DNA of 64,000 bases from Mailhella massiliensis (lineage in GTDB: Bacteria > Desulfobacterota > Desulfovibrionia > Desulfovibrionales > Desulfovibrionaceae). Numbering within the stretch: the first letter of the stretch is position 1; each line of letters opens with the position of its first letter. Shown here piece by piece: positions 6,503-22,148 of the stretch. The stretch covers positions 805,534 through 869,533 of the forward strand of contig NZ_LT706951.1 of the NCBI RefSeq assembly GCF_900155525.1, given 5' to 3'. The notes under the pieces are model-generated. The model made no database searches. It was not told the DNA's origin and saw nothing but the letters and a program-made list of their open reading frames with translations. The position numbers were made by a program, and so were the translations under genes.

Positions 6503-7042
6503 CTAAGCCGTCTCCACCGTCTCTTCCAGAGCATCCGCGCGGCGCAGCCAGCCGTTCAGAAACGGAGCCAGGGCGGGATTGTTCCAGGCCAGTTCGCAGT
6601 AGCGCGCACGGCGTATATGACACATGGCCGCGGCGGTTTTTCTGTCGTCGCAGCTTTTGAGCGCCGCCCAGGTAAGGGGCCCCCAGCGCCCGTCCGCCTG
6701 AAGTCCCAGCGCCTGCTGCGCCATCTTCTTCGCGTAGGAAACGCCCATGTTCACGGCCGTGTCGTACACGACCATGGCGCACAGAGGCTGTACGTTGTCG
6801 AGGGGGAACACATCCCAGAAGTTGCGGCGCAGAACGCGCGCGGCAAGGGCGGGCGTAAGGGCGCGCACGTCCTCTTCGTCGATGTCGCCGTCCCTGTCCA
6901 CATCGCCCGTGTCCAGCCCCTGTTCACGCAGAAAACGAAGGGAAACGCCGTACTTCGTCGCGCCGCCCGGGTCCGAAGGATGTTTGACGAATCCGCCTTC
7001 CCAGCGCGAGGTGAAGGCGTGTGCTTTCTTGAAACCGTTCAT
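6503..7042 (-). CDS. GH108-type phage endolysin with EF-hand-like insert
   Basis: This 179-aa protein is a predicted peptidoglycan muramidase of the GH108/ZliS family. The N-terminus has FTSRWEGGF with the expected catalytic Glu15, then DPGGATKYGVS. A calcium-loop-like DVDRDGDIDEED (residues 47-58) interrupts the catalytic domain. The C-terminal half has GLQADGRWGPLTWAAL, a PG_binding_3-type domain. The start at 7042 follows an AAGGAG site; an upstream in-frame extension of 108 codons lacks support. No signal peptide is seen, so export should depend on the holin. Confidence 0.88.
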   Translation of the reverse strand: MNGFKKAHAFTSRWEGGFVKHPSDPGGATKYGVSLRFLREQGLDTGDVDRDGDIDEEDVRALTPALAARVLRRNFWDVFPLDNVQPLCAMVVYDTAVNMGVSYAKKMAQQALGLQADGRWGPLTWAALKSCDDRKTAAAMCHIRRARYCELAWNNPALAPFLNGWLRRADALEETVETA

Positions 7043-7512
7043 GCCGACTCCTTTTTTCCCGGAGCCTAGCAGCCCGCCCATGCGCGGCACAGGGGAGAAA
7101 GGAGCGGCGCGCCTTTTCCCGTGCCCCGACGCCTCCCGCAGAAGGAACCCGCCTGCGAAAAAGCCGCCTTCCGGGCTTTCCCGGTCCTCTCCCGACACCA
7201 GAAAAGCCGCCTTCCGGTCCCGGCCCGACGCGGATTCCGGTATTCCGCCGTCCCCTCCGAACCGGAGCGCCCAAAGCAGAAGCGGCCTCTCCGGCGGTTC
7301 CTTCCGTCCATCTTCCCCTTCACCCGGACGGCGCCCCGCATAACCTTCAAAAACAGAAGGCGGCATATCCTCTCCGACGCCGCGCTTTCTCTGCGCTCCC
7401 CATTGTCTCCCGCGCCGTTCTTGTCTATGCTGAACACAGAAGGCGCTGTTTTCGCCGGAAAGGGAAAGGTACTTTGCCTTTCCCGCAAGCCTCCTTCCGG
7501 CAAGGAGAAGAC
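7043..7512. other. Intergenic region between prophage and LysR gene
   Basis: This 470-base stretch separates divergently read units: the prophage lysis genes to the left and the PGA regulator to the right. Promoters for both should lie here, but I cannot pick out convincing hexamers in the GC-rich sequence. No integrase or attachment repeat is visible, so the prophage edge is not defined. Confidence 0.4.
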
Positions 7513-8433
7513 ATGCAACACCCGTTCAGCGGCGATCTGCTGCAATGGATACATACGTTTCTGTCGGTTCTGGAAACGCGCAGCATCCAGCGTTCCGCAC
7601 AAAGGCTGTGCCTTTCCCCCTCCGCCGTCAGTTACCAGATCCGCAAACTGGAAACGGAACTGAACCGCACTCTTTTCGAACGCACAAGCACGGGCATGAC
7701 GGCCACCCATGAAGGGATGCAGCTGAAAAACGCCGTACTGCCCATACTCGACGCTCTCGACAGGCTCAGGCAGGGGGAAAACGCCGAACGCCCTCTGGAA
7801 GGCACCATTTACCTCACCTGTCTGGACAGGCTCGCTCACGAACTGGTTTTCCACATCCTGAACTTCCGCAGGCTTCACCCCGACGTCCACTTTTCCCTGG
7901 ACGCCACATCCTCCAAGCACGTTCATCAGCTCGTGGCCTCCGGCCTGGCGGATTTCGGACTCACCATCTACCGCGAAGTGCCGGGCTTCATCCAGTTCAC
8001 GGAACTTCGGCGCAGTTCCGCCTTTCTCTACACGCCGAAGGGCAACCCCTACAAGCTTCCTCCCCGACCGGACTGGAAGAGCATCTGCGCCCTGCCCTTC
8101 ATCGCCCTCACCCTCGACGGCTACGTCAACCCCATTCTGGCCACCACGCCCGACCTGCCCCAACCGGAAAACGTGGTCATCGCCATCAACAACTTCATTC
8201 TTGCCCTGCAACTGGTCCGGCAGGGAGTAGGCGCGTGCATCGCTCCTCCGCTCACGCCGCTGGAATCGGCGGATGACTACACCATCTTCAATATCGACCA
8301 TATCTTCGCCATCGGCACCCTCGGCATACTCAGCCGCAGGAAAAAGCTCCTTTCCTCTCCGGCGCGCGCCTTTTTCGACTATCTGCGCCTCGTCTACCCC
8401 GAGCAGCCGCAGGAACATGCGCCCGCCTCCTGA
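7513..8433 (+). CDS. LysR-family transcriptional regulator
   Basis: This 306-aa regulator has an N-terminal winged helix-turn-helix (about residues 8-65) with SIQRSAQRLCLSPSAVSYQI and the typical LETELNRTLFER wing, followed by a periplasmic-binding-like effector domain (about residues 90-295). The ATG at 7513 follows AAGGAGAAG; an in-frame ATG 39 bases upstream is less likely. It lies immediately upstream of, and on the same strand as, the PGA operon. A LysR-type box in the intervening gap suggests it controls that operon. The effector is unknown; glutamate or gamma-glutamyl peptides are plausible. Confidence 0.9.
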   Translation: MQHPFSGDLLQWIHTFLSVLETRSIQRSAQRLCLSPSAVSYQIRKLETELNRTLFERTSTGMTATHEGMQLKNAVLPILDALDRLRQGENAERPLEGTIYLTCLDRLAHELVFHILNFRRLHPDVHFSLDATSSKHVHQLVASGLADFGLTIYREVPGFIQFTELRRSSAFLYTPKGNPYKLPPRPDWKSICALPFIALTLDGYVNPILATTPDLPQPENVVIAINNFILALQLVRQGVGACIAPPLTPLESADDYTIFNIDHIFAIGTLGILSRRKKLLSSPARAFFDYLRLVYPEQPQEHAPAS

Positions 8434-8701
8434 CCTCCCGCGCCCCTTCCTCTGAAAGCATCCCGGGGAAGGGGCGCCTCCATGCCCTCCTCATCCTCAG
8501 GGCGGCGCCTTCGCGCAGCCTTTCTCCCCGCAACCGGGGGCTTTCCCTTTCTTCCGGTTTCCGTTTCTCCGGGAACCTCTCCCCCTTCTCTGCGGTCGCT
8601 CCGCATGGCCGCTCTCCTGCGGCCCATGCTTTTCCATCCCTCCGGCCAAAAACAGGCGCCTTTACCGCAACTTCCTCCTTTCACAGACTTTTCATTCCGT
8701 G

Positions 8702-8911: not shown

Positions 8912-10738
8912 ATGCAAGGATTCAACAAGGCAAGGCGGTTCATGACCATGCTGCTGGCAGGCATAGGGCTGACCACGGTCTGCTTCTCCCCGGCTGCGGG
9001 CTTCGAGTACAAGTCGGAAAAACATCTGAGCAAAGCCGCAGTGTTTGCCAAAAACGGCATGGTGGCCTCTGCGCATCCTCTCGCCTCCCGCGTGGGCGTG
9101 CAGATTCTGGAACAGGGCGGCAACGCCTTTGATGCGGCCGTGGCCACGGCTCTGACCCTGAGCGCTGTGGACATGGCCATGTGCGGCCCCGGCGGCGCCA
9201 GCTTCTGGCTTCTGTGGAACGCCAAGGAAGGCAGGCTCTACGCGCTCGATGCCGATACCCAGGCTCCGGCGGCGGCCACTCCCGACAAGTTTGCCGACCG
9301 TTCCGAGCTGCTCTCCGGTCTGAAGGCCATGGGCATTCCCGGCAACATGATGGCCTACTGCACCGTGCTGGAAAAGTTCGGCACCATGCCCTTCGGCAAG
9401 GTGGCCGAGCCTGCCATCCGCTATCTTGAGGAAGGTTTCGTACTCAGTCAGCGCCAGAGTCACAACTACAAGACGCAGGCGGCGCAGGCGCCCATGATGT
9501 ATCCCAACCTTGCCCGTGTGTTCGCCCCCGAAGGGGAATGGCCCGACGCCGGCACCCTGATGAAGAACCCGGAACTTGCCGCCACCTACCGCACCATCGC
9601 CAAGGAAGGCGTGGACGCGTTCTACAAGGGTTCCATAGCGGACGAAATGATCCGCTACATGAAGGAGAACGGCGGTCTGTGGACCAGGGAAGACCTGGCC
9701 AACTACAAGGTTCTGTGGGTGGAACCGCTGCACATGAAGTACAAGGACCTCGACGTCTACGGTATGCCGCCGCCCTCCAGCTCCGTAACGTGGATGGAAG
9801 CGCTCAAGATCGCCGAAGGTTTCGACTGGTCGAAGATAGCGGACAACAGTCTCGAATACCTGCATCTCATGGTGGAAATCGAGCGCCTCGCCCATGCGGA
9901 CTCCTACGAGTTCGTGGCTGACCCGAAGTTCGTGGAAAGCCAGGCCAAGAATCTCCTTTCCGACAACTACGCGGCGGCCCAGCGCCTGCGCATCGACAGA
10001 ACCAAGGCGGCCCCCGGCAAGGTACAGCCCGGCAAGCCCGCGGAATGGAGCAGGAAGGTTCCCGCGAGCGCGGCCCTGCCCGGCAGCCTCGCCTCCGAGC
10101 CCGTATCCCTTGCGGAAAGTACCCGCAACATGGCCTACCGCGGCAACACCAACCATGTGGTGGTCGTGGACAAGGACGGCAACTGCGTCAGCTTCACCCA
10201 TACTCTCGGCCAGTTCTTCGGCGGCCAGGACATTCTCGGCAACACCGGCGTCATCGGCAACAACGGCATGGACTGGTTCGACCTTGCCGACAACCCCTGG
10301 ACGGAAAAGCCCAGCAATCTTGTGGTGGCTCCCGGCAAGCGCAACCGCTGGACGCTCTCTCCCGGCATGTTCTTCCAGAACGGCAAGCCCCGCATTCTGG
10401 TGGGCGGCTCCGGAGCGGAATCCACCATGCCCGGCATCTTCCAGGTCATGATCCGTATGCTGGAATACGGTCTCAACCCTCAGGCCGCCATTTCCGCGCC
10501 GCGTTTCCTGTACGGCGACATGTACCACTATTCCGCCGGAACGCGCCTGGCCATCGAACCGGAACTGCGCGATCTCTGGGAAAAGGACATGGTGCGCATG
10601 GGTCACGATTCCGTGCCCGGCTCGCAGATCTGGCGCATGAGTTCCGGCAACGTATGGGTCATTGAAATCGACCCCGCCACCGGAACGTACGCCGGCGGCG
10701 CCGAAATACGCGGCGACGGCCATGTAGACGCCTACTGA
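8912..10738 (+). CDS. Secreted gamma-glutamyltransferase-family protein
   Basis: This 608-aa precursor has an N-terminal signal peptide (MLLAGIGLTTVCFSPAAG region). It belongs to the Ntn-hydrolase gamma-glutamyltransferases, which self-cleave before a Thr nucleophile and hydrolyse or transfer gamma-glutamyl groups. The cleavage region reads YRGNTNHVVVVDKDGN, with Thr413 as the predicted nucleophile; the usual second Thr is Asn here. The oxyanion/glycine region is VGGSGAESTMPG rather than the common GSPGGSRI, so specificity may differ. The ATG at 8912 follows AGGAGG. As first gene of the PGA operon it may trim, release or anchor poly-gamma-glutamate, like CapD or periplasmic GGT. Confidence 0.88.
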   Translation: MQGFNKARRFMTMLLAGIGLTTVCFSPAAGFEYKSEKHLSKAAVFAKNGMVASAHPLASRVGVQILEQGGNAFDAAVATALTLSAVDMAMCGPGGASFWLLWNAKEGRLYALDADTQAPAAATPDKFADRSELLSGLKAMGIPGNMMAYCTVLEKFGTMPFGKVAEPAIRYLEEGFVLSQRQSHNYKTQAAQAPMMYPNLARVFAPEGEWPDAGTLMKNPELAATYRTIAKEGVDAFYKGSIADEMIRYMKENGGLWTREDLANYKVLWVEPLHMKYKDLDVYGMPPPSSSVTWMEALKIAEGFDWSKIADNSLEYLHLMVEIERLAHADSYEFVADPKFVESQAKNLLSDNYAAAQRLRIDRTKAAPGKVQPGKPAEWSRKVPASAALPGSLASEPVSLAESTRNMAYRGNTNHVVVVDKDGNCVSFTHTLGQFFGGQDILGNTGVIGNNGMDWFDLADNPWTEKPSNLVVAPGKRNRWTLSPGMFFQNGKPRILVGGSGAESTMPGIFQVMIRMLEYGLNPQAAISAPRFLYGDMYHYSAGTRLAIEPELRDLWEKDMVRMGHDSVPGSQIWRMSSGNVWVIEIDPATGTYAGGAEIRGDGHVDAY

Positions 10739-10896
10739 CGCACCGCGTCACCCGTGAAGCCGCCCCGTCGGCTCTGCAAAACGGCCTTTTTCCTCTCCAC
10801 GACGAAGCCCTCCCCGGCCGGGGTCCGCTCCGGCCCGGGGAAAGGCCCTCCGCAAGGGGGAAGTCCCTTTCCCAACATGCAACCAAAGGAGATACC

Positions 10897-11454
10897 ATGC
10901 GTCATCTTTTCCGTTCCGCCGTCTGTGCTCTCGGCCTGATCGCCCTGTCCGTCGTCGGCGCCCATGCCGCCGATTTCCCCAGGATACAGACCCCGGCCCT
11001 GTTCACCTCCCTGGGGCAGAGCCCCGATGCCAAGACTCTTTCCGTACTGGCCGGGCGGGCCAAGCTTGCCGGTGAATACAAGCCGCTGGCGGGCGTCGAG
11101 GACGTGGCCGCCGCCAAGACCGTGTTCGTCACCGTAGGCACCAGCCTCAAGGGCTTCGGTTCCGCAGGCGTGAACCTCGATACGGAAAAGAAGCGCTGCC
11201 ATGATCTCGTCAAGGCTGCGAAGGACAGCGGCGCGTACCTCATTCTCGTCCATATCGGCGGCGAAGGCCGGCGCGACGCCATGACCAATCAGCTTCTGGA
11301 AGAACTCGCCCCCAGCGCGGACGCCTTCCTGGTGTACGAAGCGGGCAACAGCGACGGCTTCTTCACCAAGGCTGCGGGTGAAAGGCCCATCATCCTGGTT
11401 CCCAAGGCCATAGAAATCGCCAAGGTTCTCGGCAACCTCGCCGCAGGCAGCTGA
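10897..11454 (+). CDS. Periplasmic DUF6305-like protein
   Basis: This 185-aa protein has a clear signal peptide ending near AHAADFP. The mature domain has alternating strands and helices with TVFVTVGTSLKGFG, ILVHIGGEG and a terminal PIILVPKAIEIAKVL, fitting a small alpha/beta fold resembling the DUF6305 family. The ATG has an AAAGGAG site 6 bases upstream. It lies between the GGT and permease genes, so it could be the solute-binding partner of that permease or a PGA-chain-handling protein. The family function is unknown to me. Confidence 0.7.
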   Translation: MRHLFRSAVCALGLIALSVVGAHAADFPRIQTPALFTSLGQSPDAKTLSVLAGRAKLAGEYKPLAGVEDVAAAKTVFVTVGTSLKGFGSAGVNLDTEKKRCHDLVKAAKDSGAYLILVHIGGEGRRDAMTNQLLEELAPSADAFLVYEAGNSDGFFTKAAGERPIILVPKAIEIAKVLGNLAAGS

Positions 11455-11633
11455 ACCTCCTCAAAAGGGCGGGGTTCAGGCACCCCTGCAGCAGAGCCCC
11501 GTCCTTCCTTCCGCCGGGCCTTTCCGGGCCGCAAGCCTCCGGCGGCGTCCGCCGCAGTCTTTCCGCGAAACATCCCCGTTCCGCTCCGCCTCGGAAGCCG
11601 TTTCGTTTCACACCTTCGACATGAGGGGGCCCC

Positions 11634-12971
11634 ATGTTCACACATTCCCACGGCGACGCCATGTATGTCACGGCAAGCATCGCACTTGCCGCCATGATCG
11701 TCAGCTATGTCGCCATCCTTCTGCTGGGAAAGAAATTCAGGCAGGACATCCCCATTGCCGTCAACCTGTTCGTTTCCGTCGCCATAAGCGCCGTGGTCAC
11801 GGGCTTCGGCATTCCGTTCCGCCATCTGTTTGAAGGGCCGGTCTGGTACATCTACATCAATCTCGTGATCTTCACCGGCATGATGTTCCTCACCTGTCTC
11901 AGGCAGGCGGGCAATCTGGACTGCATCGCCTACGACATCGTGACCACGTTCCGCAACAGGCCGACCATCATGTTCTGCCTCATCACCCTGCTGCTGTTCT
12001 TCCCCGGCATGGTCACGGGCGTAGGCACGGCCGCCGTGCTCAGCACAGGCATGGTCGCCATCACCATTCTGCGCATCTGCGGCATTCCCAATCTGAAAAT
12101 AGCGGCCATCATCGCCATGGTCACGTCCATCGGCGCGGCCGCCCCGCCGGTCAACCTGCCGGCCATCATCATCGCAAGCGGCATCAACATGCCCTACGAG
12201 GGATTCGACCTTCTGCTTCTGGTCATGACGGTTCCGCTCGGACTGTTCACCATCTTCTTCCTGGGGTATCGCGACTTCCGCTCCCCGAGTCTGGAAGCCA
12301 TCGAGGAAAAGCTCCCCCGGCCGGAACGCAAGAATTTCATCATGCCCTATGTGCCGCTCATCGTGGTGGTGGGCATCATGGTGCTCATCCGCGTCTTCCC
12401 CGGAGAATTTCCCGACATCGTCACTCCCATGGTCTTCGTCATCGGCACCTTCGTGACCATGTTCACGGGCAGGAAGTTCCGCTATGTGGACGCCTGCGCC
12501 GAAGCCCTGCGCGGCGGCGTGTTCTCCACCGTGGCGCTCATCTTCGTGGTCGGTTCCGTGGTACAGGTGACCACGCTCACCGGGGCCAAGGGACTGCTGG
12601 TTCTCGGCGCCATGGTGGTGGGTTCCATAGCCCCGGCGCTCATGTACCTCGCCATGGGCGTGAGCCTGCCCCTTCTGGGCGGCGTGCTCACCCATCTGGG
12701 CGCTTCGGTCATTCTGGGCATTCCCTTCACTCTGGCCATGGTAAGCAGCAATCAGATCGCCATCGTGGCGGGCTGCTCCATGCTCTGCGTGCTGGCCCAG
12801 GTCATTCCGCCCTCCGCCCTGGGCGGCTACTTCGCTCAGGAACTCACGCAGGAACCCTCCTATTCGCCCATTCTGAAGAAGAGCCTCATTCCCCTCATCG
12901 TGTGCGTGGTCTTCACCATGGCGGAACTCGTCTTCGCCAATCAGTTCGCCGCCTGGTTCGTGCCCTTCTAG
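11634..12971 (+). CDS. IT-superfamily / TRAP DctM-like permease
   Basis: This 445-aa integral membrane protein has about 11-12 hydrophobic segments. A glycine- and proline-rich loop (FFPGMVTGVGTAA...IGAAAPPVNLPAI) resembles the conserved re-entrant region of TRAP large permeases and related ion transporters. A mirrored motif occurs in the second half (LGGVLTHLGASVILG...VIPPSALGG), consistent with an inverted-repeat transporter. No DctP or classical DctQ partner lies beside it; the neighbours are a periplasmic DUF6305 protein and a 54-aa membrane protein. In this operon it probably moves glutamate, gamma-glutamyl peptides or a related acid. Substrate and direction are inferred. Confidence 0.75.
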   Translation: MFTHSHGDAMYVTASIALAAMIVSYVAILLLGKKFRQDIPIAVNLFVSVAISAVVTGFGIPFRHLFEGPVWYIYINLVIFTGMMFLTCLRQAGNLDCIAYDIVTTFRNRPTIMFCLITLLLFFPGMVTGVGTAAVLSTGMVAITILRICGIPNLKIAAIIAMVTSIGAAAPPVNLPAIIIASGINMPYEGFDLLLLVMTVPLGLFTIFFLGYRDFRSPSLEAIEEKLPRPERKNFIMPYVPLIVVVGIMVLIRVFPGEFPDIVTPMVFVIGTFVTMFTGRKFRYVDACAEALRGGVFSTVALIFVVGSVVQVTTLTGAKGLLVLGAMVVGSIAPALMYLAMGVSLPLLGGVLTHLGASVILGIPFTLAMVSSNQIAIVAGCSMLCVLAQVIPPSALGGYFAQELTQEPSYSPILKKSLIPLIVCVVFTMAELVFANQFAAWFVPF

Positions 12972-13097
12972 CAAGCTGCCTCAGGAAAACGCCTGCTTCC
13001 GCAGAACGCGGCTTCCGCCTCCGGCAGACAAAGCGTTTTCTCCTGCGCTCCCCGGCGCTCATCATGGGGGCAGACCACCATCCGCAAGGAGTTCACT

Positions 13098-13262
13098 ATG
13101 CCGCCACTGTATATCATCGTCATGGCCATGTACACCGTGCTCACCGCGTTCATACTGTACCTCGTCATCCGCAACACCCTGCGTTCCCGGAACGTCTGGG
13201 AACAGATTCTGGCCATATTCGTCATCGTTCCCTTTGCCATGCGGCTGTTTTTCATCAAGTAA
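13098..13262 (+). CDS. 54-aa two-TM membrane protein of the PGA operon
   Basis: This short gene encodes 54 residues starting MPPLYIIVMAMYTVLTA. There are two hydrophobic helices (about residues 4-24 and 36-53) separated by a basic linker, RNTLRSRNVWEQ. The ATG follows an AAGGAG site at 9-base spacing, and the stop is 11 bases before the next gene, so it is clearly placed in the operon. It could be a miniature DctQ-like subunit for the preceding permease, or a functional counterpart of the tiny PgsE/CapE proteins of Bacillus PGA synthases. No sequence similarity to either can be claimed. Confidence 0.75.
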   Translation: MPPLYIIVMAMYTVLTAFILYLVIRNTLRSRNVWEQILAIFVIVPFAMRLFFIK

Positions 13263-13273
13263 GGGAGGCCGGC

Positions 13274-14467
13274 ATGACCATCAACCACAGAAAGACGGGC
13301 TGGGCGGCCGTAGCCGTCTCCGTGCTCTTCAGCGTGCTGCTTACGCTGAACTATGTTCAGATGTGGAAGGACGACCTCATCATTCCCGGCCCGGGCGTCA
13401 CGGAAGTGAAGTGGCTCAGCGACTATGAGCCTTCCCTCAGGGGCACGCTGGGCGACACCCGCGTCTTCATCATGGAAGGCCGGGAACCGGGCGCAACCTT
13501 CCTCGTGCTCGGCGGCACCCATGCCGACGAACCGGCGGGCTGGGGCGCGGCGCTCATCCTCGTGGAACACTGCACCGTGGCCAGGGGGCGCGTCATCGTC
13601 CTTCCCCAGTGCAGCAACACGGGCTTCACCCACAACTATCCGCAGGAAGCGCACCCTCAGTTCATCAGCTTCCCCCGTCCCGACGGTACGAAGCGCACGT
13701 TCCGTCACGGTTCGCGCACGGGCAACTCGGCCGAGCACTGGCCCGACCCGGAAGTCTTCATCCAGTATCCGCACAAGCAGAAGTATTCCGGCGAGGAATG
13801 CCGCAATCCCAACCGCGCCTATCCCGGCCGCCCGGACGGCACCTTCGCCGAGCGCGTGGCCTACGGCATCCAGCAGCTCAACCGGCAGGAAAAGGTGGAC
13901 ATGCAGATCGACCTGCATGAAGGCCAGCCCGAATATCCCTTCATCAACGCGCTGAGCGGCCACCCCCGCGCGCAGGATCTCGTGAGTCTCGCCGCGCTGG
14001 AAATGCAGATGTACGACCTCGACATCGGGGCCGAAGTCTCTCCGCCTTCCTTCCGCGGACTCAGCAATCTGGAAATGGGCGACCTCTTCCCCGAGCTCAT
14101 GGCCATGACCTCCGAAACGGTCAACCCCACCCAGGGCAAGATACGCGGCATCACCGACGAATTCCTCCCCGTGGACGGCATCGACGCCTTCTACGACCGT
14201 GCGGCGGAACTCGGCTATCTCTTCGCCCCGTGGGAGGGCGGCAGCCCGCTCAAGAAGCGCATCGGCCGCAACATGCAGGAACTTCAGGCCCTGTGCGTGG
14301 CCCTCAGGGAAGTCACCGGCAAGGAAGTGGAGTTCGAACGCATTCCCTCCTACGAAGATCTCATGACCAACGGCGTGGGCTACTACTTCAATCCTCCGCC
14401 CGCAGAACCCGCGGACCCCGGCTTCCGCGCCCTGCCCGGCGTGTGGAGGCTGTTCACGCAATCCTGA
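13274..14467 (+). CDS. M14 zinc peptidase-like (AstE/AspA family) protein
   Basis: This 397-aa protein has one N-terminal membrane anchor (residues 10-30) and an extracytoplasmic zinc hydrolase domain of the succinylglutamate desuccinylase/aspartoacylase branch of M14. GGTHADEPAG supplies His83 and Glu86, and MQIDLHEG supplies His215, the expected zinc ligands. A TSETVNPTQGKIRG segment fits substrate binding. These enzymes cleave acylated amino acids or terminal amides, so an N-acyl- or gamma-glutamyl-type product is plausible. GGAGG precedes the ATG. It lies between the permease and the synthase genes, suggesting processing of PGA fragments. Confidence 0.8.
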   Translation: MTINHRKTGWAAVAVSVLFSVLLTLNYVQMWKDDLIIPGPGVTEVKWLSDYEPSLRGTLGDTRVFIMEGREPGATFLVLGGTHADEPAGWGAALILVEHCTVARGRVIVLPQCSNTGFTHNYPQEAHPQFISFPRPDGTKRTFRHGSRTGNSAEHWPDPEVFIQYPHKQKYSGEECRNPNRAYPGRPDGTFAERVAYGIQQLNRQEKVDMQIDLHEGQPEYPFINALSGHPRAQDLVSLAALEMQMYDLDIGAEVSPPSFRGLSNLEMGDLFPELMAMTSETVNPTQGKIRGITDEFLPVDGIDAFYDRAAELGYLFAPWEGGSPLKKRIGRNMQELQALCVALREVTGKEVEFERIPSYEDLMTNGVGYYFNPPPAEPADPGFRALPGVWRLFTQS

Positions 14468-14566
14468 GGCTTCTCCCCGTCCTTCCGGCGTGCCGGAGGG
14501 GCGGGTCCGACATCTTTAAAGCAAAGGTTGAAGTTTTCCCGACCGGAAAAACGCCGCTCCCAACTC

Positions 14567-14583
14567 CCCGGCAAGTTGCCGGG
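14567..14583 (+). terminator. Possible attenuator hairpin before pgsB
   Basis: CCCGGC, a 5-base loop, GCCGGG, followed after six bases by a short TTTT run. It lies in the 182-base gap between the M14 gene and pgsB and could reduce read-through into the synthase genes. The stem is short. Confidence 0.3.
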
Positions 14584-14649
14584 AACGCCCTTTTCTCCCC
14601 GCGGACCGTTTCTGCCGTGTTCCGCGCCTTTTCCTCCAGCGGAGGCTTC

Positions 14650-15834
14650 ATGATCTTCTGGCTCTGTCTTCTTCTCGTTCTTGTGCCTCTTGTGGTGGAG
14701 GGGCGGCAGCTTTGCGCATGGCGCAGGCGCGTTCCCTGCCGTATTCATGTGCACGGCACGCGGGGCAAGAGCGCGGTGGTCCGCCGCACGGCCGCGCTTC
14801 TGCGCGAAAGGGGGCTGCGCGTTCTGGCAAAGACCACGGGAGACGCGCCGGAATACCTCCTTCCCGACGGTTCCACCGCTCCCGTGCGGCGCACAGGCCC
14901 GGCGAGCATACGCGAACACATACGCATCCTGCGCATGGCCTCGGCCATGAATGCGGATGTCGTCGTGGTGGAAGGCATGGCGCTGCAGAAGGAAAACGTG
15001 CTGACCTCCGAACAGATACTGCGCGCCACCTGCGCCGTCGTCACCAATCTGCGGCCGGACCATGAGGAAACCATGGGCCGCGGCCGCAAAGGCGTGCTGC
15101 GCACCCTCTCGCTCATGATTCCGCCGGGGGCAACGGTGTACACGGGGAACGAAACGGGCGCGCTTTCCCTGTCCGCCCATGCCGCGGCCAAGGGAGCGTG
15201 CTGCCGCATCGTTGACGCGCCTCTTTCCGCCCCCGCACAGCCCGAGGCTCTGGCCCGTGCCGCAGCGGACGACGTATGCCGTGCGCTCCGGCTTCCCGCC
15301 CCGGTCTTGCCTTTCCCCGGCGCCGCCCCGTCTTCCTGCGGCACCTCTCCCGGGCAGGCCCGGCCTCTGGCCGGTACGCCGGAAGACATGCCCGTTCTTT
15401 TTCTCGACCTCTTTTCCGTGAACGACGTCGCTTCCGCGCGCATGATGCTGGCGGCCCGCGAAAGAAAGGAAGCTGCCGGCCTTCTCCGCGCGGCGCTTCT
15501 CTGCACCCGTGCGGACAGACCCCTGCGCACCACGGCCTTCACGGCATGGCTTGTTCATGAAAGCTTCTTCGACGTCCTTGTTCCGGTGGGAAGCCATGCG
15601 CCCTGCGCACTCTGGTACGGCGCGCTTTCGGCAGGGCGTCCCTGCCCTGTTCCCCGTCCCGCCCTTGTCTCCGCAGGGCTGTGGAATGCCCCCCCGCCGG
15701 AAAAGCTTGTGGCCGACCTTATCCGCACGGCCCGGGAAAAAGGCCGCTTTGGCCTGTTCGTGACAGGCCTCGGCAACGCCCACGGCTACGCGGAACGATT
15801 CCGCGCGTGTTATGGAGGCCCCCCATGCTCATAG
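14650..15834 (+). CDS. pgsB: Poly-gamma-glutamate synthase PgsB/CapB
   Basis: This 394-aa protein has an N-terminal membrane segment and a Mur-ligase-like P-loop, HGTRGKS (residues 35-41), the hallmark of PgsB/CapB amide ligases that polymerise glutamate through gamma-carboxyl phosphate. TTGDAPEYLLPDG, VVVVEGMALQ and VVTNLRPDHEETMG match conserved blocks of the family. The region from about 200 to 255 is longer and Ala/Pro-rich compared with the compact core. The ATG follows GGAGG, and the stop overlaps the start of pgsC, so the two are coupled. Identification is strong. Confidence 0.93.
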   Translation: MIFWLCLLLVLVPLVVEGRQLCAWRRRVPCRIHVHGTRGKSAVVRRTAALLRERGLRVLAKTTGDAPEYLLPDGSTAPVRRTGPASIREHIRILRMASAMNADVVVVEGMALQKENVLTSEQILRATCAVVTNLRPDHEETMGRGRKGVLRTLSLMIPPGATVYTGNETGALSLSAHAAAKGACCRIVDAPLSAPAQPEALARAAADDVCRALRLPAPVLPFPGAAPSSCGTSPGQARPLAGTPEDMPVLFLDLFSVNDVASARMMLAARERKEAAGLLRAALLCTRADRPLRTTAFTAWLVHESFFDVLVPVGSHAPCALWYGALSAGRPCPVPRPALVSAGLWNAPPPEKLVADLIRTAREKGRFGLFVTGLGNAHGYAERFRACYGGPPCS

Positions 15835-16265
15835 AATCCATCGCCACAGGTCTCGTGCTGGGCTTTTTCCTTTTTGAATGGACGGGCCTCGTGGCCGGGG
15901 GGCTCATCGCTCCGGGCTATTTCGCCCTTTCGCTGGAGCGGCCCGGCACCATAGCCCTGTGCCTCGGCGTAGCCCTCGGCACCATGCTCTGTATGCGCCT
16001 TCTCTCCCGCTTCTGCCTGCTCTACGGCCGCCGCCGCTTCATCCTCTGCGTACTCGTCGGCTTTGCCCTGCAGTGGACGCTGGGGGCCGCCGTCATGGGT
16101 ACGGATGCGGCCCTCGGGCGGGTGGAAACCGTGGGGTACATCATTCCCGGGCTGGTGGCTCATGAAATGGACAGACAGGGCCCCTGCCTCACGCTTCTCG
16201 CCCTGCTTGCCCTCACCTGCGCGGTGAGACTCGTCATGGAAATGCTGGGTCGAATGCCGTACTAG
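15825..16265 (+). CDS. pgsC: Poly-gamma-glutamate synthase membrane subunit PgsC/CapC
   Basis: This 146-aa protein has four to five transmembrane helices. The N-terminal block GLVLGFFLFEWTGLVAGGLI and PGYFAL are typical of PgsC, the membrane partner that with PgsB forms the PGA polymerase and channel. VGYIIPGLVAHEMDRQG is the second conserved block. The start lies 10 bases inside pgsB and has a GGAGG site. No PgsA/CapA metallophosphoesterase-like gene follows; a PgsW homologue takes that place. Confidence 0.93.
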   Translation: MLIESIATGLVLGFFLFEWTGLVAGGLIAPGYFALSLERPGTIALCLGVALGTMLCMRLLSRFCLLYGRRRFILCVLVGFALQWTLGAAVMGTDAALGRVETVGYIIPGLVAHEMDRQGPCLTLLALLALTCAVRLVMEMLGRMPY

Positions 16266-16365
16266 CCGCAATTTCCCAAGCCGCCTGCGCGGCAAAACGG
16301 CCCGCCACGCCCGGAGCGCACGTCGCGGCCGCAGCATCTTCCCTCCGGCAGACAGGAGGCCTGCC

Positions 16366-17484
16366 ATGTACCGTTTTCTTTCCCTTTTTCTTCAGCTTTC
16401 GGGTCCTCCGGCTCATGCTTCGCCCCCGCCGTGGAAAAAAACGCGCCTGCTGCTCTGCCTTGCCCTTGTTCTCTCCTGCCTGACCTGCGCTGTCCTGCTC
16501 ATGCGCGATCCGTGGCGGCCCGACGAAGACGCCCTGCGCGCCTCGCGCCTCATGCGCCGGGGCATGGAGGCCGTCGGAGAACTGCGCGAAGAACTCGGCA
16601 TCGCCGTAGACCCCGCGCTGGACCCGGCCCGTACCGGATTCATCGGCACGGACTACAGCGACCTCACCACCTCCATAGGGTTCCTGAGCGCCAAGCAGAC
16701 CAGCCTCAACCCCGATTTTGCAGGCCTTGTCACCTTCTGGCTGAAGCAGGCGGACGTCACCAGGGGCGACATCGTGGCCGTCTGTCTCACCGGCTCCTTT
16801 CCCGCCCTCAATCTTGCCGCACTCAGCGCCTGCGAAACCCTCGGCCTGCAACCGGTGGTCTTCTCTTCCGTGGGCGCCTCCAACTACGGGGCCAACATTC
16901 CGGGCCTTACCTGGCTGGATATGGAACGCGAACTGACCGCGCGCGGCATACTTCACGTGCAGACAGGCTTTGCCTCTCTGGGAGGCATCATGGACGGCGA
17001 CGGCGGTCTCGACGGCACGGGCTTCGCCCTCGGGGAAGAGGCCATACGCCGCCACGGCGCGGTCTCCATTCCCGAAAAAGGAGTGGAAGGCCTGGAAGAA
17101 GACATGAAGCGCCGCATGGCCATCTACTTTCAGAACGGCCCGCCCAGGGCCTTCATCAATGTAGGCGGGGGTGTGACCTCGCTCGGCTGGGTGAGCGAAG
17201 CCGCCCTGCTGGACAACGGTCTGCTCACGCGCGTGCCCGCCACAAAAAGCCCCCGGCGCGGCATCATCTTCCGCATGTACGAAAAAGGCATTCCCGTCAT
17301 CCATCTCATCAACATCGAACGCCTGGCCGCCCGCTACGACCTGCCCGCCGCCCCCACGTCCGTACCCGACGGAAAAGACAGAGAGACCCGGCGCATGTTC
17401 CGCATCACAGGCACGCTGCTGCTCTTCGCCCTCTGGGGAGCTCTTGCCGTCTGCGCCCTTCTTCCGCGACGTCAAAAAACATGA
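16366..17484 (+). CDS. pgsW: Poly-gamma-glutamate system protein PgsW-like
   Basis: This 372-aa protein has N-terminal (about residues 26-46) and C-terminal (about 345-365) membrane segments around a large extracytoplasmic domain. The N-terminal RASRLMRRGMEAVGELREE and FIGTDYSDLTTSIGFLSAKQ, and the central GGGVTSLGW, match the protein that accompanies PgsB and PgsC in non-Bacillus PGA loci and often replaces PgsA. It is the last gene of the operon; a convergent gene ends 72 bases beyond it. Its biochemical role is not known. The assignment rests on family pattern plus adjacency to pgsBC. Confidence 0.85.
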   Translation: MYRFLSLFLQLSGPPAHASPPPWKKTRLLLCLALVLSCLTCAVLLMRDPWRPDEDALRASRLMRRGMEAVGELREELGIAVDPALDPARTGFIGTDYSDLTTSIGFLSAKQTSLNPDFAGLVTFWLKQADVTRGDIVAVCLTGSFPALNLAALSACETLGLQPVVFSSVGASNYGANIPGLTWLDMERELTARGILHVQTGFASLGGIMDGDGGLDGTGFALGEEAIRRHGAVSIPEKGVEGLEEDMKRRMAIYFQNGPPRAFINVGGGVTSLGWVSEAALLDNGLLTRVPATKSPRRGIIFRMYEKGIPVIHLINIERLAARYDLPAAPTSVPDGKDRETRRMFRITGTLLLFALWGALAVCALLPRRQKT

Positions 17485-17556: not shown

Positions 17557-20500
17557 TCAACGCTGCACGGTATCCTCAAGCCACGTCTGCACGGCGTCCG
17601 GTTCCTTTTTCAGGATATTCTCCACAAGCAGGTTCACCTCTTCCCGCATGGGGTCCTCAGCCCCGGCTTCCTCGGCTTCCTGAAAAAACATTTTCAGAAG
17701 TTCGCACAAGATACCGCCTTTCGCCCTGTCCCAGTAAACGCGGGGCATATCCCAGAACCGCGCCATGGCCGAAAACGCCTCCCGGCAATGATGGCGGGCA
17801 TAAAAACGGCACCATTCGGGAAAACCATGCAACGCTGTGAAAAGGTCGGGAAAGTTCCCCGCCGCCGTCAGTATCGCTTCCACAATATCGTACGGAACAA
17901 AAATAAAGCCCTGTTCCTGCCTGCTGAACAGCCGCATACCTTCGCTGATGATATTCCTGTCTTCCTTCCTGCAGGCCAGAATATCGCGTATGCCCGCAAA
18001 GCACATCTCCCGCAAAGGGTCGTCACCTGCGTTGAATACCAGCATCCGCATGCACTCCAGCCATACCCCGGCATGGTCGAGGGTGGAAAGCCGCCGCAGG
18101 TATTCCTCGCGCGGCATGCGCTGCAGAAGAAACGCCCATGTAAGAAGTTCCCCCAGTATTTCTGCGGAATCCTTCAGCGGCAGCGAACCCATGGCATCCA
18201 CATAGTACATGGTCTTTTCATAGTCGACATCCACACTGTCGCACAGATAATCCAGGGCAAAATCCCAGATTTCCGCAGGGCCGGGAGCCACGGCCCGGTC
18301 GAACAGCGTCCAGCCCTCCTCGGCGGGCAGGCGCATAAAGGCCAGATGGCGCAGCAGTACGGACCGCGGACCGGGATGGGAATCGGCGGCAAAGGCAAAA
18401 AGGCAGTCGTTCAGCCACGGCGGCAGAGAAAGAGCTTTTTCCCGCAGGCGTACCGCCAGCGTGCACACGGCGGAAACCCAGCTTCCCCGGACGGCGTTTT
18501 CAAACTCTTCCAGCCTATCGCTTCCCTGCCCTGCGGAAAGCCTGTCCGTCCATGCAACCATGTGTTGCAAGCTCTCCGCCTCCTTTGCAGAAGAAACAAG
18601 GTAGATGCAGGCGTGCAGCACAGCATCCGCCGCAAACACCTGCACCTTGCGCTTTTCTCCCAGTGCCCCCATAGCCGTCAGCGCATCCCAGAGCCATTCC
18701 CGGGAAGGCGTCGAGGCCACGGGCCTTGCGCCGGAAATGGTGAGATTGCCGAACCTGCTCCAGGCATGCTGTGCCACGCCTTCCATGACGGCATCGGCAA
18801 AAAGGGGCGCAATATCCTCCGGCCATGTGCTCATGCGGGGCCAGAAGGCTTCCGGCTTTCTGCGCGCCGCGCTGGAAAGCGCTCGTGCCAGTTCCTCCGG
18901 CCCGCCCATGAAATGCCCGTCCACATATTCTCTGAGTCTGTCGTCCGTACCGGGAGCGGAATAATACCGGAGCAGGCGCAGAAGTTCTTCGTCGGAAAGT
19001 TCCAGCAGCGTATCCTCATCACAGGGAGACACTACAGTGCCGACGCGCATGGACTCTCCGTCCCCGGATGCAGCAGGGGCGGGTTCCTTCAGCTTTTCCA
19101 GAACGGCCACGCTCTCCGGCAGGCGGTACGGCGCGGGCACGGCGGCAAGGTAGAGTTTCCAGAACCATGCCGCACGGTCGGCATCAGGGGCCTCTCTCCC
19201 CAGAGCAATCAAATCACGCTGAAAGGCATCAAGCACGTCTTTCTCAAGATGCGGCGCGGCCTTTTGCAGCAAAAGAGCCAAAGGCTGCCGGAAATATACC
19301 CCGCACGGAGTCGCCTTGCCTATGTGCGAAAGCGCCTCCTGCACCAGACTCAGGTTGTTCTGCGGCTGCTCCAGAAGGCCGCACAGACATAGATAGCGTA
19401 TGCCGAGTTCGTCCGAAGCCCAGAGCTTCGCGGCATGATCCTGCCACCACGGGCTGTTCTTCTCCGCATGATGTATGCAGGCCCGCACGACGGCCGAAAA
19501 CAGCATGTCGAAGCCGTACTCTGCGCCGGGTACTTTTTTTCTGATGCAGTCATGGAAAAAATACCGCGTGCGGCCATCCATGAGAGTCATGCCTCCCTCA
19601 CGGCTCCACTCCTCCATGGAGGCAATCGCCATGTCGAGCAGCACTTCCGAATCCCGCATTCTTCCCTCAAGAAAATCCCTGCGGTAAAAATCCGCCGTGC
19701 CGCATTCAAGCCTGAGGTTCCCCGCCATGCGCGCGTGCTTCACCTTACGGGTGATGAAACGCCATAAAAGGTCGTCGTTACCATTCTCGGCGTCGACCCA
19801 TTGTGACAGCGGCCTGCCCAGCATCAGATGCGGAGCATCCCCCACAACGTCCATGAGCCGCTCGAAAAGCTCCCGCAGGCCGGGAACATTCCATTCGGAA
19901 ACGTCGTTCAACCAGAAGACGGCAGCCCCCACAACGACGGCATCTTCCCTGCCTGTATCCAGCAGGTATCTCCACAGCCGGACGATTTCGGCAAGGTTCA
20001 CGCCCTCGCGGTTCCCGCACCAGATTCCAAAGCGTACCAGGCTCCACCGGTCACGTTTCTCCTTCCACAGCGGCAGAAAATGGCGGCAGAGAAAGGCAAA
20101 CCACCGCTCCGGCTCCGCCGCTTCCAGAAACGCAAAAAAAAGATGCTCATCCCTATTATTGGAAAGCAGGGAAGCATCCCTCTCTTCCGGCTCCACCTCG
20201 GCCATGGAAACAGCCAGAAGCCATTTGAAGTGGAACGCCGGTTCCGGCGAACGAAGCGCCTCGCGCACTTCGCGCCGAAAACGCGCGGAATCCCTCGCCC
20301 TCAGGGCAAAAAAGAACACCCGCACGGCGGCCCGCAGAGAGGGACGGGAGGACATGCCCGTAATGAACTCCAGCAGCGTTTTTCCGTTGCGCATGGCATG
20401 GCTTACGGCCAGCCAGTCCGTCCATGTCTGGTGTATGAACGTATAGCGGTGAATTTTCTCTTCCCAGAGCACCCCTTCGCTTTCACAGAAGCGGAGCTGC

Positions 20501-22056
20501 TCCTCCGTAAGATTCAGCTCATCCCGCCCCATGGAAAGCCGGTCTTGCTCAAGCATCCGCAGGGCGACATCTTCCAATTGCTCCCGGAGCGCGGGCCAGT
20601 CCGTACGTCTGCGGCCGAGCTGGCGCAGGTATTCCTCGGCAAGTTCCCAGGCCGTGACCGCATCGGAGCCGCCGCATTCCCGCCAGACGAAAAGAAACAT
20701 CCCAAGCATACGCGGCAGGGAAATCAGCGCCTTCTGCTTCTCCGAAAGCCGGGCAATCTCCACCCCCATGCCTTCCAGCCAGGGCAGAACATCCTTCTCC
20801 ACCTCAAGCGGCCCGGCCTCCACCTTCTTCCATGGGCGGAACATATCGAAATACGGGTCATAGTCGAAATCGAATTTCCGGCAGGCAGCCGTCACCGTCA
20901 CATCCTTCAACGGGCGGAGCTGTTCCAGCACGACGCGCACAGGCCCGAAAAATTCTTCTCCGGCCATGGAAAGCACGTCCAGAGAATCCACCACAACCAC
21001 CACCTTCCGCCGCTCCGCCATGCGGGCCACGGCATCGACGAAGGTTTCCGTCAGATTCCCGAGCTCCTCTCCTCCCAGGTCGCGCGCCTGCACAAATACG
21101 GGAAACAGGTCGGAACGCTCCTTCAGCGCATCCCACAAATCCAGCAGGATGCAGGTCTTGCCCGCTCCGGCCTCCCCGGTAAGAAGCGCATTTTGCCCTT
21201 CCTCCACAAGACGCAGCAGTTGCTGCGTCTCGCTGCGGAAAAAGCGCCGCCCTCCAATATCTCTGGGCCAGCTTGTTCCCCGCAGGGAATACTTTTCAAC
21301 ATACCGTTTCAGCTCTTCTTCACTGCGCAGGGGCGTGACGCGGCAGCCCGCCGTTGCCAGCGTATCCAGAAGGCTCTGCCGGGTAAGGTGAAACTTCTTT
21401 TCAGGAATACGGCGCCTTTTCTCAGCGTCGGCAGCATCCGTTCTTGCCGCCATGCGGCGGATTTTCTCCTTGATGGCGGCAAGAGCCGTATCTCCTCCGG
21501 CAACCTGCCGCCTGAGACGCAAAGGAATCTCTTTCTGAAGCTGTTCCAAAGAGATATTGCGAAATTCGAGCGCAAGGAAAAAACGCCGCAGGCGTTCCTC
21601 GTTCTGCTCCCCCACCGTCTGCCTGAAGTTCTCATACTCCCTTTTTGCCTTCGCGCTCATCAGCGAGAGAAACTCTCCGTCATTCTCCGCCATCCGGGCA
21701 CACTCGATGATACCCGTCAGAACGGGAAAGGGGCTGGCAGAATAAAAAACAAAGCGCTGCCCGGCGGAAGCGCACAAAAACTGCTTCCATGCCTTGAGGA
21801 GATCTTCCCTCAGGGAAGAAAAGGTCCAGTTTCCATAGCCGGGGCTGTTGACCTTGCACTGGCAGAAGACGGCGTCACCGTTTTTATGGTGAACGACAAT
21901 GTCATCCACAGGCACCTCTCTGCCCTGTGCATCAAAAAGCACCTCGCACTCAAGGCTCTGGATACTCTCGCCGTCAAGCATGTCCAGCGCCAGATTCACG
22001 GCCACAAGAACCTGATATTCATCTCCCCTGTTTGAATACATGCCGGCCCTGCTCAT
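17557..22056 (-). CDS. Avs-like STAND NTPase with N-terminal nuclease-like domain
   Basis: This is a predicted 1499-aa defence protein. Residues 1-110 resemble the DUF4297/Cap4 dsDNA nuclease domain, with NRGDEYQVLVAVNLAL and the catalytic-type pattern Asp51/Asp52 ... Gln66-x-Lys68 (FCQCK). A STAND/NACHT-like ATPase follows, with Walker A TGEAGAGKT (Lys300) and Walker B VVVVVDSLD about 60 residues on. The remaining 900 or so residues are helical, repeat-like and carry many Trp/Leu/Glu pairs, fitting a phage-protein sensor. This is the plan of Avs proteins. The start at 22056 (MSRAG) has a GGAGGG site; two upstream ATGs do not. The gene stands alone on its strand. Family placement is inferred. 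Confidence 0.72.
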   Translation of the reverse strand: MSRAGMYSNRGDEYQVLVAVNLALDMLDGESIQSLECEVLFDAQGREVPVDDIVVHHKNGDAVFCQCKVNSPGYGNWTFSSLREDLLKAWKQFLCASAGQRFVFYSASPFPVLTGIIECARMAENDGEFLSLMSAKAKREYENFRQTVGEQNEERLRRFFLALEFRNISLEQLQKEIPLRLRRQVAGGDTALAAIKEKIRRMAARTDAADAEKRRRIPEKKFHLTRQSLLDTLATAGCRVTPLRSEEELKRYVEKYSLRGTSWPRDIGGRRFFRSETQQLLRLVEEGQNALLTGEAGAGKTCILLDLWDALKERSDLFPVFVQARDLGGEELGNLTETFVDAVARMAERRKVVVVVDSLDVLSMAGEEFFGPVRVVLEQLRPLKDVTVTAACRKFDFDYDPYFDMFRPWKKVEAGPLEVEKDVLPWLEGMGVEIARLSEKQKALISLPRMLGMFLFVWRECGGSDAVTAWELAEEYLRQLGRRRTDWPALREQLEDVALRMLEQDRLSMGRDELNLTEEQLRFCESEGVLWEEKIHRYTFIHQTWTDWLAVSHAMRNGKTLLEFITGMSSRPSLRAAVRVFFFALRARDSARFRREVREALRSPEPAFHFKWLLAVSMAEVEPEERDASLLSNNRDEHLFFAFLEAAEPERWFAFLCRHFLPLWKEKRDRWSLVRFGIWCGNREGVNLAEIVRLWRYLLDTGREDAVVVGAAVFWLNDVSEWNVPGLRELFERLMDVVGDAPHLMLGRPLSQWVDAENGNDDLLWRFITRKVKHARMAGNLRLECGTADFYRRDFLEGRMRDSEVLLDMAIASMEEWSREGGMTLMDGRTRYFFHDCIRKKVPGAEYGFDMLFSAVVRACIHHAEKNSPWWQDHAAKLWASDELGIRYLCLCGLLEQPQNNLSLVQEALSHIGKATPCGVYFRQPLALLLQKAAPHLEKDVLDAFQRDLIALGREAPDADRAAWFWKLYLAAVPAPYRLPESVAVLEKLKEPAPAASGDGESMRVGTVVSPCDEDTLLELSDEELLRLLRYYSAPGTDDRLREYVDGHFMGGPEELARALSSAARRKPEAFWPRMSTWPEDIAPLFADAVMEGVAQHAWSRFGNLTISGARPVASTPSREWLWDALTAMGALGEKRKVQVFAADAVLHACIYLVSSAKEAESLQHMVAWTDRLSAGQGSDRLEEFENAVRGSWVSAVCTLAVRLREKALSLPPWLNDCLFAFAADSHPGPRSVLLRHLAFMRLPAEEGWTLFDRAVAPGPAEIWDFALDYLCDSVDVDYEKTMYYVDAMGSLPLKDSAEILGELLTWAFLLQRMPREEYLRRLSTLDHAGVWLECMRMLVFNAGDDPLREMCFAGIRDILACRKEDRNIISEGMRLFSRQEQGFIFVPYDIVEAILTAAGNFPDLFTALHGFPEWCRFYARHHCREAFSAMARFWDMPRVYWDRAKGGILCELLKMFFQEAEEAGAEDPMREEVNLLVENILKKEPDAVQTWLEDTVQR

Positions 22057-22148
22057 ACGTCCCTCCATGGAAACATGAGGCAATGGTAAGAACGCCGGGC
22101 AGACATGGCAAGAAAAACTCGACGTATGTTTTCAGAGCCGCCGCCCCC

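What the first reader, a model, noticed from the sequence alone, without database searches (positions are those of the whole stretch)
8912..17484. PGA operon combining synthase, GGT, zinc hydrolase and a lone permease
PgsB, PgsC and PgsW homologues sit in one rightward unit with a secreted gamma-glutamyltransferase, a DUF6305 protein, an IT/TRAP-type permease without DctP/DctQ, and an M14 hydrolase, under an adjacent LysR gene. Known: PgsBC polymerise glutamate and GGT-type enzymes cleave or transfer PGA. Inference: this is a combined make, trim and recycle system, or a gamma-glutamyl compound pathway using PgsBC, in an anaerobic Gram-negative. I do not know of a described pathway with this set.
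Basis: partly seen in the sequence, partly recalled or inferred. Interest (0 to 1): 0.82.

Follow-up and report, generated by a model that had tools for sequence, protein, structure and literature searches.

The report
Eight-gene polyglutamate make-and-reclaim operon
A gut bacterium carries eight side-by-side genes that look able to make a glutamate polymer outside the cell and probably to cut it up and take it back, and the same gene set recurs in distantly related oxygen-avoiding bacteria, which would make the polymer a recoverable store rather than only a coat.

Summary
The window (near Mailhella, Desulfovibrionaceae) carries GGT, DUF6305, a DctM/IT-type permease, an overlooked 54-aa two-helix protein, an AstE/M14-type zinc hydrolase, PgsB, PgsC and PgsW, all rightward. 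A Cetobacterium plasmid has the same eight-gene order at 26-44% identity; a scan anchored on the hydrolase found 36 loci in several phyla. Of 98 Fusobacteriota genomes, the same 17 hold hydrolase, permease and DUF6305; 16 of them, and no other, hold PgsW. I infer that PgsBCW make and export the polymer, GGT and the zinc enzyme trim it, and DUF6305, the small protein and the permease form a reduced tripartite importer. Shown: anatomy, linkage, catalytic residues. Inferred: substrate and direction of transport. Gram-negative PgsB-PgsC-third-gene clusters are known; in the held library I found no description of the companion module.

The parts
7474..8433 (+). LysR-type regulator, adjacent; its role in this unit is inferred from position only
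   Evidence: PF00126 and PF03466 above cut-off; no such family recurs in three or more related loci
8912..10738 (+). GGT-family (T03) secreted Ntn hydrolase, divergent glutamyl pocket
   Evidence: PF01019 433 bits; catalytic Thr and T409 equivalent kept, R114, N411, S462, S463 equivalents changed; N-terminal hydrophobic segment
10897..11454 (+). DUF6305, secreted flavodoxin-like alpha/beta protein, proposed receptor
   Evidence: PF19823 137 bits; model pLDDT 88.7; lipobox in 8 of 10 Bacillota rows of A5 (read)
11634..12974 (+). DctM/IT-superfamily permease
   Evidence: 22 of 27 family members match PF06808 at E up to 0.1, this member does not on its own; many hydrophobic segments
13098..13262 (+).
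   Evidence: family found in 36 of 38 loci, directly before the hydrolase; dN 0.016, dS 0.20 against L008
13274..14467 (+). membrane-anchored AstE/M14-type zinc hydrolase, proposed gamma-glutamyl carboxypeptidase
   Evidence: H83, E86, N180-R181, E281 in 31 of 31, H215 in 30 of 31; AstE_AspA matched by 30 of 31 members at E up to 0.01; one N-terminal hydrophobic segment
14650..15834 (+). PgsB amide ligase, divergent
   Evidence: TIGR04012 160 bits, below its cut-off; P-loop GTRGKS read in the translation
15825..16265 (+). PgsC membrane subunit
   Evidence: TIGR04011 above cut-off; overlaps PgsB by 10 bases
16366..17484 (+). PgsW, third gene of the Gram-negative PGA cluster
   Evidence: TIGR04332 296 bits; model pLDDT 88.1, no PDB match at E below 0.001

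Best explanation
This is an eight-gene poly-gamma-glutamate operon that couples synthesis with reclamation. PgsB and PgsC polymerise glutamate with ATP and PgsW takes the place of PgsA in passing the chain out (inferred from family). Outside the inner membrane a GGT-family hydrolase and a membrane-anchored zinc hydrolase shorten the chain, the first classically from the N-terminal end, the second by inference from the C-terminal end. DUF6305 (binding), the two-helix protein (small subunit) and the DctM-like permease then act together as a reduced tripartite importer of glutamate or short gamma-glutamyl peptides. PGA would thus be an adjustable coat and a glutamate reserve.
For: Same eight-gene order in Cetobacterium at 26-44% identity. 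In 98 Fusobacteriota genomes hydrolase, permease and DUF6305 occur in the same 17, PgsW in 16 of them and in no other; 14 of 15 fetched regions carry all eight families on one strand, the 15th being cut by its contig end. In a Clostridia sample PgsW and the hydrolase occur in the same 2 of 274, one of them the genome the sample was centred on. PgsC is found at E up to 0.001 in 16 of 16 genomes searched behind hydrolase loci (14 over cut-off), including seven whose fetched stretch shows no PgsB or PgsC. Zinc ligands and the NR motif are kept (their meaning is recalled). A D-glutamate cyclase-like gene (PF14336) precedes GGT in L012, and related ORFs sit there in L013 and L014; a glutamate-racemase-like lipoprotein precedes pgsB in L031 and L032; a family whose L035 member is a C69 dipeptidase follows the hydrolase in five Spirochaetes loci that show no GGT. 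B. [quoted passage not shown]
Against: No substrate was tested. The window's GGT lacks the usual glutamyl pocket, as do 8 others of 27. PgsB scores below its cut-off. Direction of transport is inferred from the permease superfamily. One Desulfobacterota genome (G227) has PgsBCW without the hydrolase, and one contaminated genome (G269) has hydrolase fragments without PgsW. Four of 20 genomes or records behind hydrolase loci show no PgsW, all MAGs. DUF6305's fold gives no binding-protein match.
Confidence: 0.55

Rival explanations
1. The companion module serves export and maturation, not reclamation: the hydrolases release or size the polymer, and the permease and DUF6305 handle a counter-ion or a by-product during secretion.
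For: Synthesis genes are present in most searched genomes that hold the module; Bacillus PGA operons also have release or trimming enzymes beside them (PMC4497714 and PMC8909396, passages seen).
Against: A D-glutamate cyclase-like gene and racemase-like genes beside the unit in a few loci point to use of the products; DctM-type permeases are importers (recalled).
Confidence: 0.25
2. The unit makes and handles a short gamma-glutamyl compound or conjugate rather than PGA; PgsBC build a short gamma-glutamyl chain and the divergent GGT and the AstE-type enzyme remove acyl groups.
For: The window's GGT has lost glutamyl-binding residues; nearest solved relatives of the hydrolase include N-acetyl-L-2,4-diaminobutyrate deacetylase; PgsB is divergent.
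Against: 18 of 27 cassette GGTs keep the canonical pocket, three of these with Ser for T409, as do all 21 in the fetched Fusobacteriota regions, one with Ser for T409; PgsC and PgsW pass their cut-offs.
Confidence: 0.12
3. A scavenging system for PGA or gamma-glutamyl peptides made by others, with PgsBCW kept for an unrelated capsule.
For: Some loci have the module without PgsB or PgsC on the fetched stretch (for example L012-L014, L035, L037).
Against: Those five genomes all hold a PgsC match elsewhere, and in Fusobacteriota the two never separate, apart from one contig break.
Confidence: 0.06

Closest known systems
Gram-negative three-gene PGA cluster (PgsB-PgsC-third gene; Candela et al. 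2009, Fusobacterium nucleatum)
   Same: PgsB, PgsC and PgsW (TIGR04332) in this order
   Different: Five further conserved genes (GGT, DUF6305, permease, small protein, zinc hydrolase) stand with it. The paper is known to me from citations in PMC3815933 and PMC4497714; its three-gene finding is recalled, its text is not held
Bacillus pgsBCAE/capBCADE operons
   Same: PgsB and PgsC; a GGT-family enzyme, CapD, in the cap operon (PMC4497714, passage seen)
   Different: No PgsA or PgsE family among the nine window proteins scanned; PgsW, permease, DUF6305, small protein and AstE-type hydrolase are added
TRAP transporters (DctP-DctQ-DctM)
   Same: DctM-like large permease with an extracytoplasmic soluble protein and a small membrane protein beside it
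   Different: The soluble protein is DUF6305 (185 aa with its signal) and the small protein has two hydrophobic segments and 54 aa; neither matched a DctP or DctQ family
PghP gamma-PGA hydrolases (PF05908) and Csd4-type M99 carboxypeptidases
   Same: Zinc-dependent M14-like hydrolases that act on gamma-glutamyl bonds (PghP: PMC4497714 passage; Csd4: recalled)
   Different: No PF05908 match at E up to 0.01 in any of 31 members; M99 matches weakly in 8 of 31, below its cut-off in the window; AstE_AspA is the best family

Membership tests
PgsBC-type gamma-PGA synthase | PgsB amide ligase with P-loop | tested here: inconclusive
   TIGR04012 160 bits, below cut-off 222.7; P-loop GTRGKS present
PgsBC-type gamma-PGA synthase | PgsC membrane subunit beside PgsB | tested here: met
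   TIGR04011 110 against 96, overlapping gene
PgsBC-type gamma-PGA synthase (Bacillus type) | PgsA/CapA third subunit | tested here: not met
   no PgsA family among the nine proteins; rest of genome not searched
Gram-negative PgsB-C-W cluster | PgsW (TIGR04332) directly after PgsC | tested here: met
   296 bits against 100
Gram-negative PgsB-C-W cluster | production of PGA | not testable with these tools
   needs cells
Gamma-glutamyltransferase (T03) | catalytic Thr at the subunit junction | tested here: met
   aligned with E. coli T391
Gamma-glutamyltransferase (T03) | glutamyl-binding residues R114, N411, S462, S463 (roles recalled) | tested here: not met
   replaced in the window, both L010 copies and L011; kept in 18 of 27 cassette GGTs and in 21 of 21 from fetched Fusobacteriota regions
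TRAP transporter | DctM-type large subunit | tested here: inconclusive
   22 of 27 family members match PF06808, the window member does not on its own
TRAP transporter | DctP and DctQ subunits | tested here: not met
   no such family among the unit's proteins; DUF6305 and a 54-aa protein instead
AstE/M14-type zinc hydrolase | HxxE...H zinc site and catalytic Glu | tested here: met
   H83, E86, E281 in 31 of 31, H215 in 30 of 31
PghP gamma-PGA hydrolase | PF05908 match | tested here: not met
   none of 31 members at E up to 0.01

The most novel reading that the evidence does not exclude
DUF6305, the two-helix protein and the permease are a new minimal tripartite transporter, parallel in plan to TRAP but with unrelated receptor and small subunit, dedicated to gamma-glutamyl peptides or D/L-glutamate. 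With it, anaerobes of several phyla run PGA as a reversible extracellular glutamate reserve, made in one state and reclaimed in another.
Probability: 0.4. Interest if true: 0.8.

Novelty: new variant of a known kind. Interest (0 to 1): 0.66.

Why it matters
PGA is studied mainly in Bacillus as a capsule or a product. In the Fusobacteriota searched here, and in loci of other anaerobes, the PGA genes come with a five-gene hydrolase-and-permease module. That gives DUF6305, a tiny membrane protein, a permease family and an AstE-type family a common context and a testable role, and makes the question of what PGA does for Gram-negative anaerobes directly testable by deleting the proposed importer.

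Tried and rejected
Chance neighbourhood: rejected, since the order recurs across phyla. PghP-type hydrolase: no match. Known fold for DUF6305: only common Rossmann/flavodoxin-like matches (Foldseek best E 5e-4; VIA-align best Z 9.1, 3.0 A over 137 residues, with many unrelated rows close behind), so no function follows. Known fold for PgsW: no Foldseek match at E below 0.001. Profile search of the permease against PDB sequences: nothing up to E 1; of DUF6305: best E 0.04, taken as chance. Viral contigs for PgsW: no relative. Plasmids: 1 record, Cetobacterium. Literature: nine searches of the held library. No paper holds DUF6305; none holds poly-gamma-glutamate with succinylglutamate desuccinylase, nor the two term sets that joined PGA with transporter words; pgsW as a word gave four papers that are unrelated by title. 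The PGA papers listed were seen as listings only, except three of which I saw passages (PMC3815933, PMC4497714, PMC8909396). Most subscription papers are not held, so absence in print is not shown.

Weak points kept: PgsB is the least conserved part (26% to Cetobacterium; dN/dS about 0.29 against L008). L010's hydrolase has Pro in place of the third zinc ligand. L029 shows the hydrolase without a detected small protein before it. The Clostridia sample was centred on a genome known to have the system, and the second PgsW match in it (G635) is a fragment below the cut-off. The D-glutamate cyclase-like gene has a Pfam match but no NCBIfam match at E up to 1e-5, and the racemase-like gene is below NCBIfam's cut-off. 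Rows dropped before counts: one search kept only + strand matches above a bit-score floor per family. Nearly identical, truncated or N-terminally extended rows were left out of A2 (27 of 35 permeases used), A3 (33 of 36), A4 (31 of 38), A5 (24 of 30), A6 (22, A5 less the plasmid row and L035) and A7 (19 of 22). The GGT table used only sequences over 400 aa. One search was given 16 and another 20 of the 37 loci outside the window; L034 was given to neither.
Full report
What is there. On the + strand of the window stand GGT (8912-10738), DUF6305 (10897-11454), a permease (11634-12974), a 54-aa membrane protein (13098-13262), a zinc hydrolase (13274-14467), PgsB (14650-15834), PgsC (15825-16265) and PgsW (16366-17484), with LysR at 7474-8433. 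Family support is: GGT, DUF6305, PgsC and PgsW pass curated cut-offs; PgsB does not (160 against 223 bits) but keeps its P-loop; the hydrolase sits exactly at the AstE_AspA cut-off; the small protein matches nothing, and the permease only a weak DcuC model far below its cut-off. The two + strand terminator-like sites lie upstream, at 8525 and 8607, and the scan finds no + strand promoter-like site; its counts do not exceed shuffles.

Organism. A Mailhella MAG locus (L008) matches the hydrolase at 97%, so the genome is of or near Mailhella, Desulfovibrionaceae (inference). The system is rare in relatives: PgsC in 2 of 99 genomes of the family sample, none of the other 3 of the genus; PgsW in 2 of 395 of the phylum sample. 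The other family member with a hit, G086, has a PgsC-PgsW fusion and no PgsB on the fetched stretch. Between window and L008, dN is well below dS for the five genes compared (small protein 0.016/0.20, hydrolase 0.016/0.41, PgsB 0.21/0.71, PgsC 0.053/0.47, PgsW 0.13/0.55), so these are under purifying selection; GGT, DUF6305 and the permease were not compared, as L008 begins inside the permease.

Conservation. A plasmid of Cetobacterium somerae (Fusobacteriota) carries the same eight genes in the same order, annotated as GGT, DUF6305, TRAP large permease, hypothetical, succinylglutamate desuccinylase, pgsB, pgsC, pgsW; identities are 33, 36, 36, 36, 44, 26, 32 and 30% in gene order. A scan of the species-genome collection anchored on the hydrolase gave 36 loci, by record titles from Deltaproteobacteria, Bacillota, Cetobacterium, Treponema and other Spirochaetes, Synergistaceae, Aminicenantes and Marinimicrobia. 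Over these, the window and the plasmid (38 hydrolase loci), profile searches find the small protein in 36, the permease in 35, DUF6305 in 30, PgsB in 25, GGT in 24, PgsC and PgsW in 22 each; several contigs end inside the unit, so the lower counts are floors. The order permease-small protein-hydrolase is nearly invariant, while GGT, DUF6305 and PgsBCW move. In L040 a second, diverged permease-small protein-hydrolase set stands before the first, as if the three were copied as one.

Co-occurrence. In the 98 Fusobacteriota genomes searched, the hydrolase is in 17, the permease in the same 17 and DUF6305 above cut-off in the same 17 (two more genomes show sub-cut-off scraps); PgsW is in 16 of the 17 and in no other; the seventeenth, G501, has a contig that ends inside pgsC. 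Fisher's test gives 2e-17, but kinship makes this only indicative: 15 hydrolases there are 68-99% identical in pairs and form four groups at 80%. Fifteen regions were fetched. In 14 all eight families stand on one strand, with an extra GGT in seven of them; in one of these (L088) a GGT copy stands between DUF6305 and the permease, and L095 has DUF6305 and permease split over frames; the fifteenth, L102, is cut by its contig end but agrees. In a Clostridia sample PgsW is in 2 of 274 and the hydrolase in the same 2; one is the genome the sample was centred on, and the other's PgsW match is a fragment below cut-off, so this is weak. Of the 37 loci outside the window, the genomes of 16 were searched for PgsC: 16 of 16 have a match, 14 over cut-off, among them seven whose fetched stretch shows no PgsB or PgsC (L012, L013, L014, L023, L030, L035, L037). 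Another 20 (19 genomes and the plasmid) were searched for PgsW: 16 have it; the four misses are MAGs (L019, L029, L036, L011). L034 was in neither call. Against strict coupling: G227 has PgsBCW without the hydrolase, and G269 (9% contamination) has hydrolase fragments but no PgsW.

GGT. E. coli GGT residues were mapped (their roles are recalled). Of 27 cassette GGTs over 400 aa, 18 keep R114, T391, T409, N411, D433, S462 and S463, three of these with Ser for T409; so do all 21 from the fetched Fusobacteriota regions, one with Ser for T409. Nine of 27 are altered, and all nine keep T391 and T409. The window, both L010 copies and L011 have D or G for R114, G for N411, W for S462 and T for S463. 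L024 and L040 (Bacillota), L028, and the second copies in L031 and L032 are altered in other ways. So the window's enzyme is probably active, but a plain gamma-glutamyl substrate is doubtful.

Hydrolase. The zinc ligands H83 and E86, the presumed catalytic E281 and N180-R181 are kept in 31 of 31 members, H215 in 30 of 31. Closest families are AstE_AspA (30 of 31) and weakly Peptidase_M99 (8 of 31); closest PDB sequences include N-acetyl-diaminobutyrate deacetylase and, weakly, a secreted protein (4wcm) that I recall as Csd4. M99 (Csd4) enzymes cut a gamma-D-Glu bond (recalled), which makes a gamma-glutamyl carboxypeptidase plausible; one N-terminal hydrophobic segment suggests a membrane-anchored, outward-facing enzyme. 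This is inference.

Transport part. Twenty-two of 27 permeases match DctM at E up to 0.1. DUF6305 has a signal-type N-terminus and, in 8 of 10 Bacillota rows, a lipobox (L020, L018, L016, L026, L022, L030, L025, L040; not L012 and L014; read). Its model is confident (pLDDT 88.7), a single flavodoxin-like domain without a telling match. The small protein has two hydrophobic segments in the window and three invariant residues over 33 rows. I propose receptor, small subunit and large subunit, in plan like TRAP but not a TRAP member, since DctP and DctQ are lacking.

Clues to the product. A D-glutamate cyclase-like gene (PF14336, 187 bits, tested in L012) stands before GGT, with clustered ORFs in L013 and L014. 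A racemase-like lipoprotein with both Cys motifs (motif meaning recalled) stands before pgsB in L031 and L032; the L031 copy passes Pfam's Asp/Glu racemase cut-off but scores 83 bits against NCBIfam's 147. A family whose L035 copy is a C69 dipeptidase follows the hydrolase in five Spirochaetes loci that show no GGT. These fit a polymer with D-glutamate whose units are reused, but they concern few loci.

What is known. Gram-negative PGA production by F. nucleatum is on record (Candela et al. 2009, seen as a citation in PMC3815933 and PMC4497714; the distinct third gene is recalled). A survey of PgsB/PgsC and PghP (PMC4497714, passages seen) treats distribution; the passages I saw do not mention this module. 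I found no paper on the eight-gene unit within the held library (searches listed under Tried and rejected).

Verdict. A real, conserved operon; a new variant of a known kind (PGA systems) with a proposed new transporter type inside. The system assignment is firm; reclamation is the best of several readings.

Noticed in passing
window 17557-22083 (- strand): A 1508-aa gene with a sub-cut-off AAA match and a PADLOC LmuA-like hit (E 3e-9) lies between pgsW and sequence (from 22144) that in the related L008 follows pgsW within about 150 bases; it looks like a strain-specific insertion of a candidate defence gene.
   Followed up: partly
window 6503-7366 (- strand): A glycosyl hydrolase 108 protein with a peptidoglycan-binding domain (endolysin type) stands upstream of the LysR gene, hinting at a prophage remnant.
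   Followed up: no
L006 8248-9315 (- strand): In a genome of the same family, PgsC and PgsW are fused in one ORF with inner parts missing and no PgsB on the stretch, probably a decayed copy.
   Followed up: partly
L040 5045-11140: Two permease-small protein-hydrolase sets, one strongly diverged, with DUF6305 between them.
   Followed up: no
L095 and the G566 hydrolase locus: In G545 (L095) the DUF6305 and permease genes are split over frames, and in G566 the hydrolase match contains one TGA.
   Followed up: no
L017, L018, L020, L026, L027, L028, L031, L032, L040: A second, shorter AstE-type protein is encoded between the main hydrolase and pgsB; only the L018 and L031 copies were scanned against Pfam. 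L016 and L024 also have one.
   Followed up: partly
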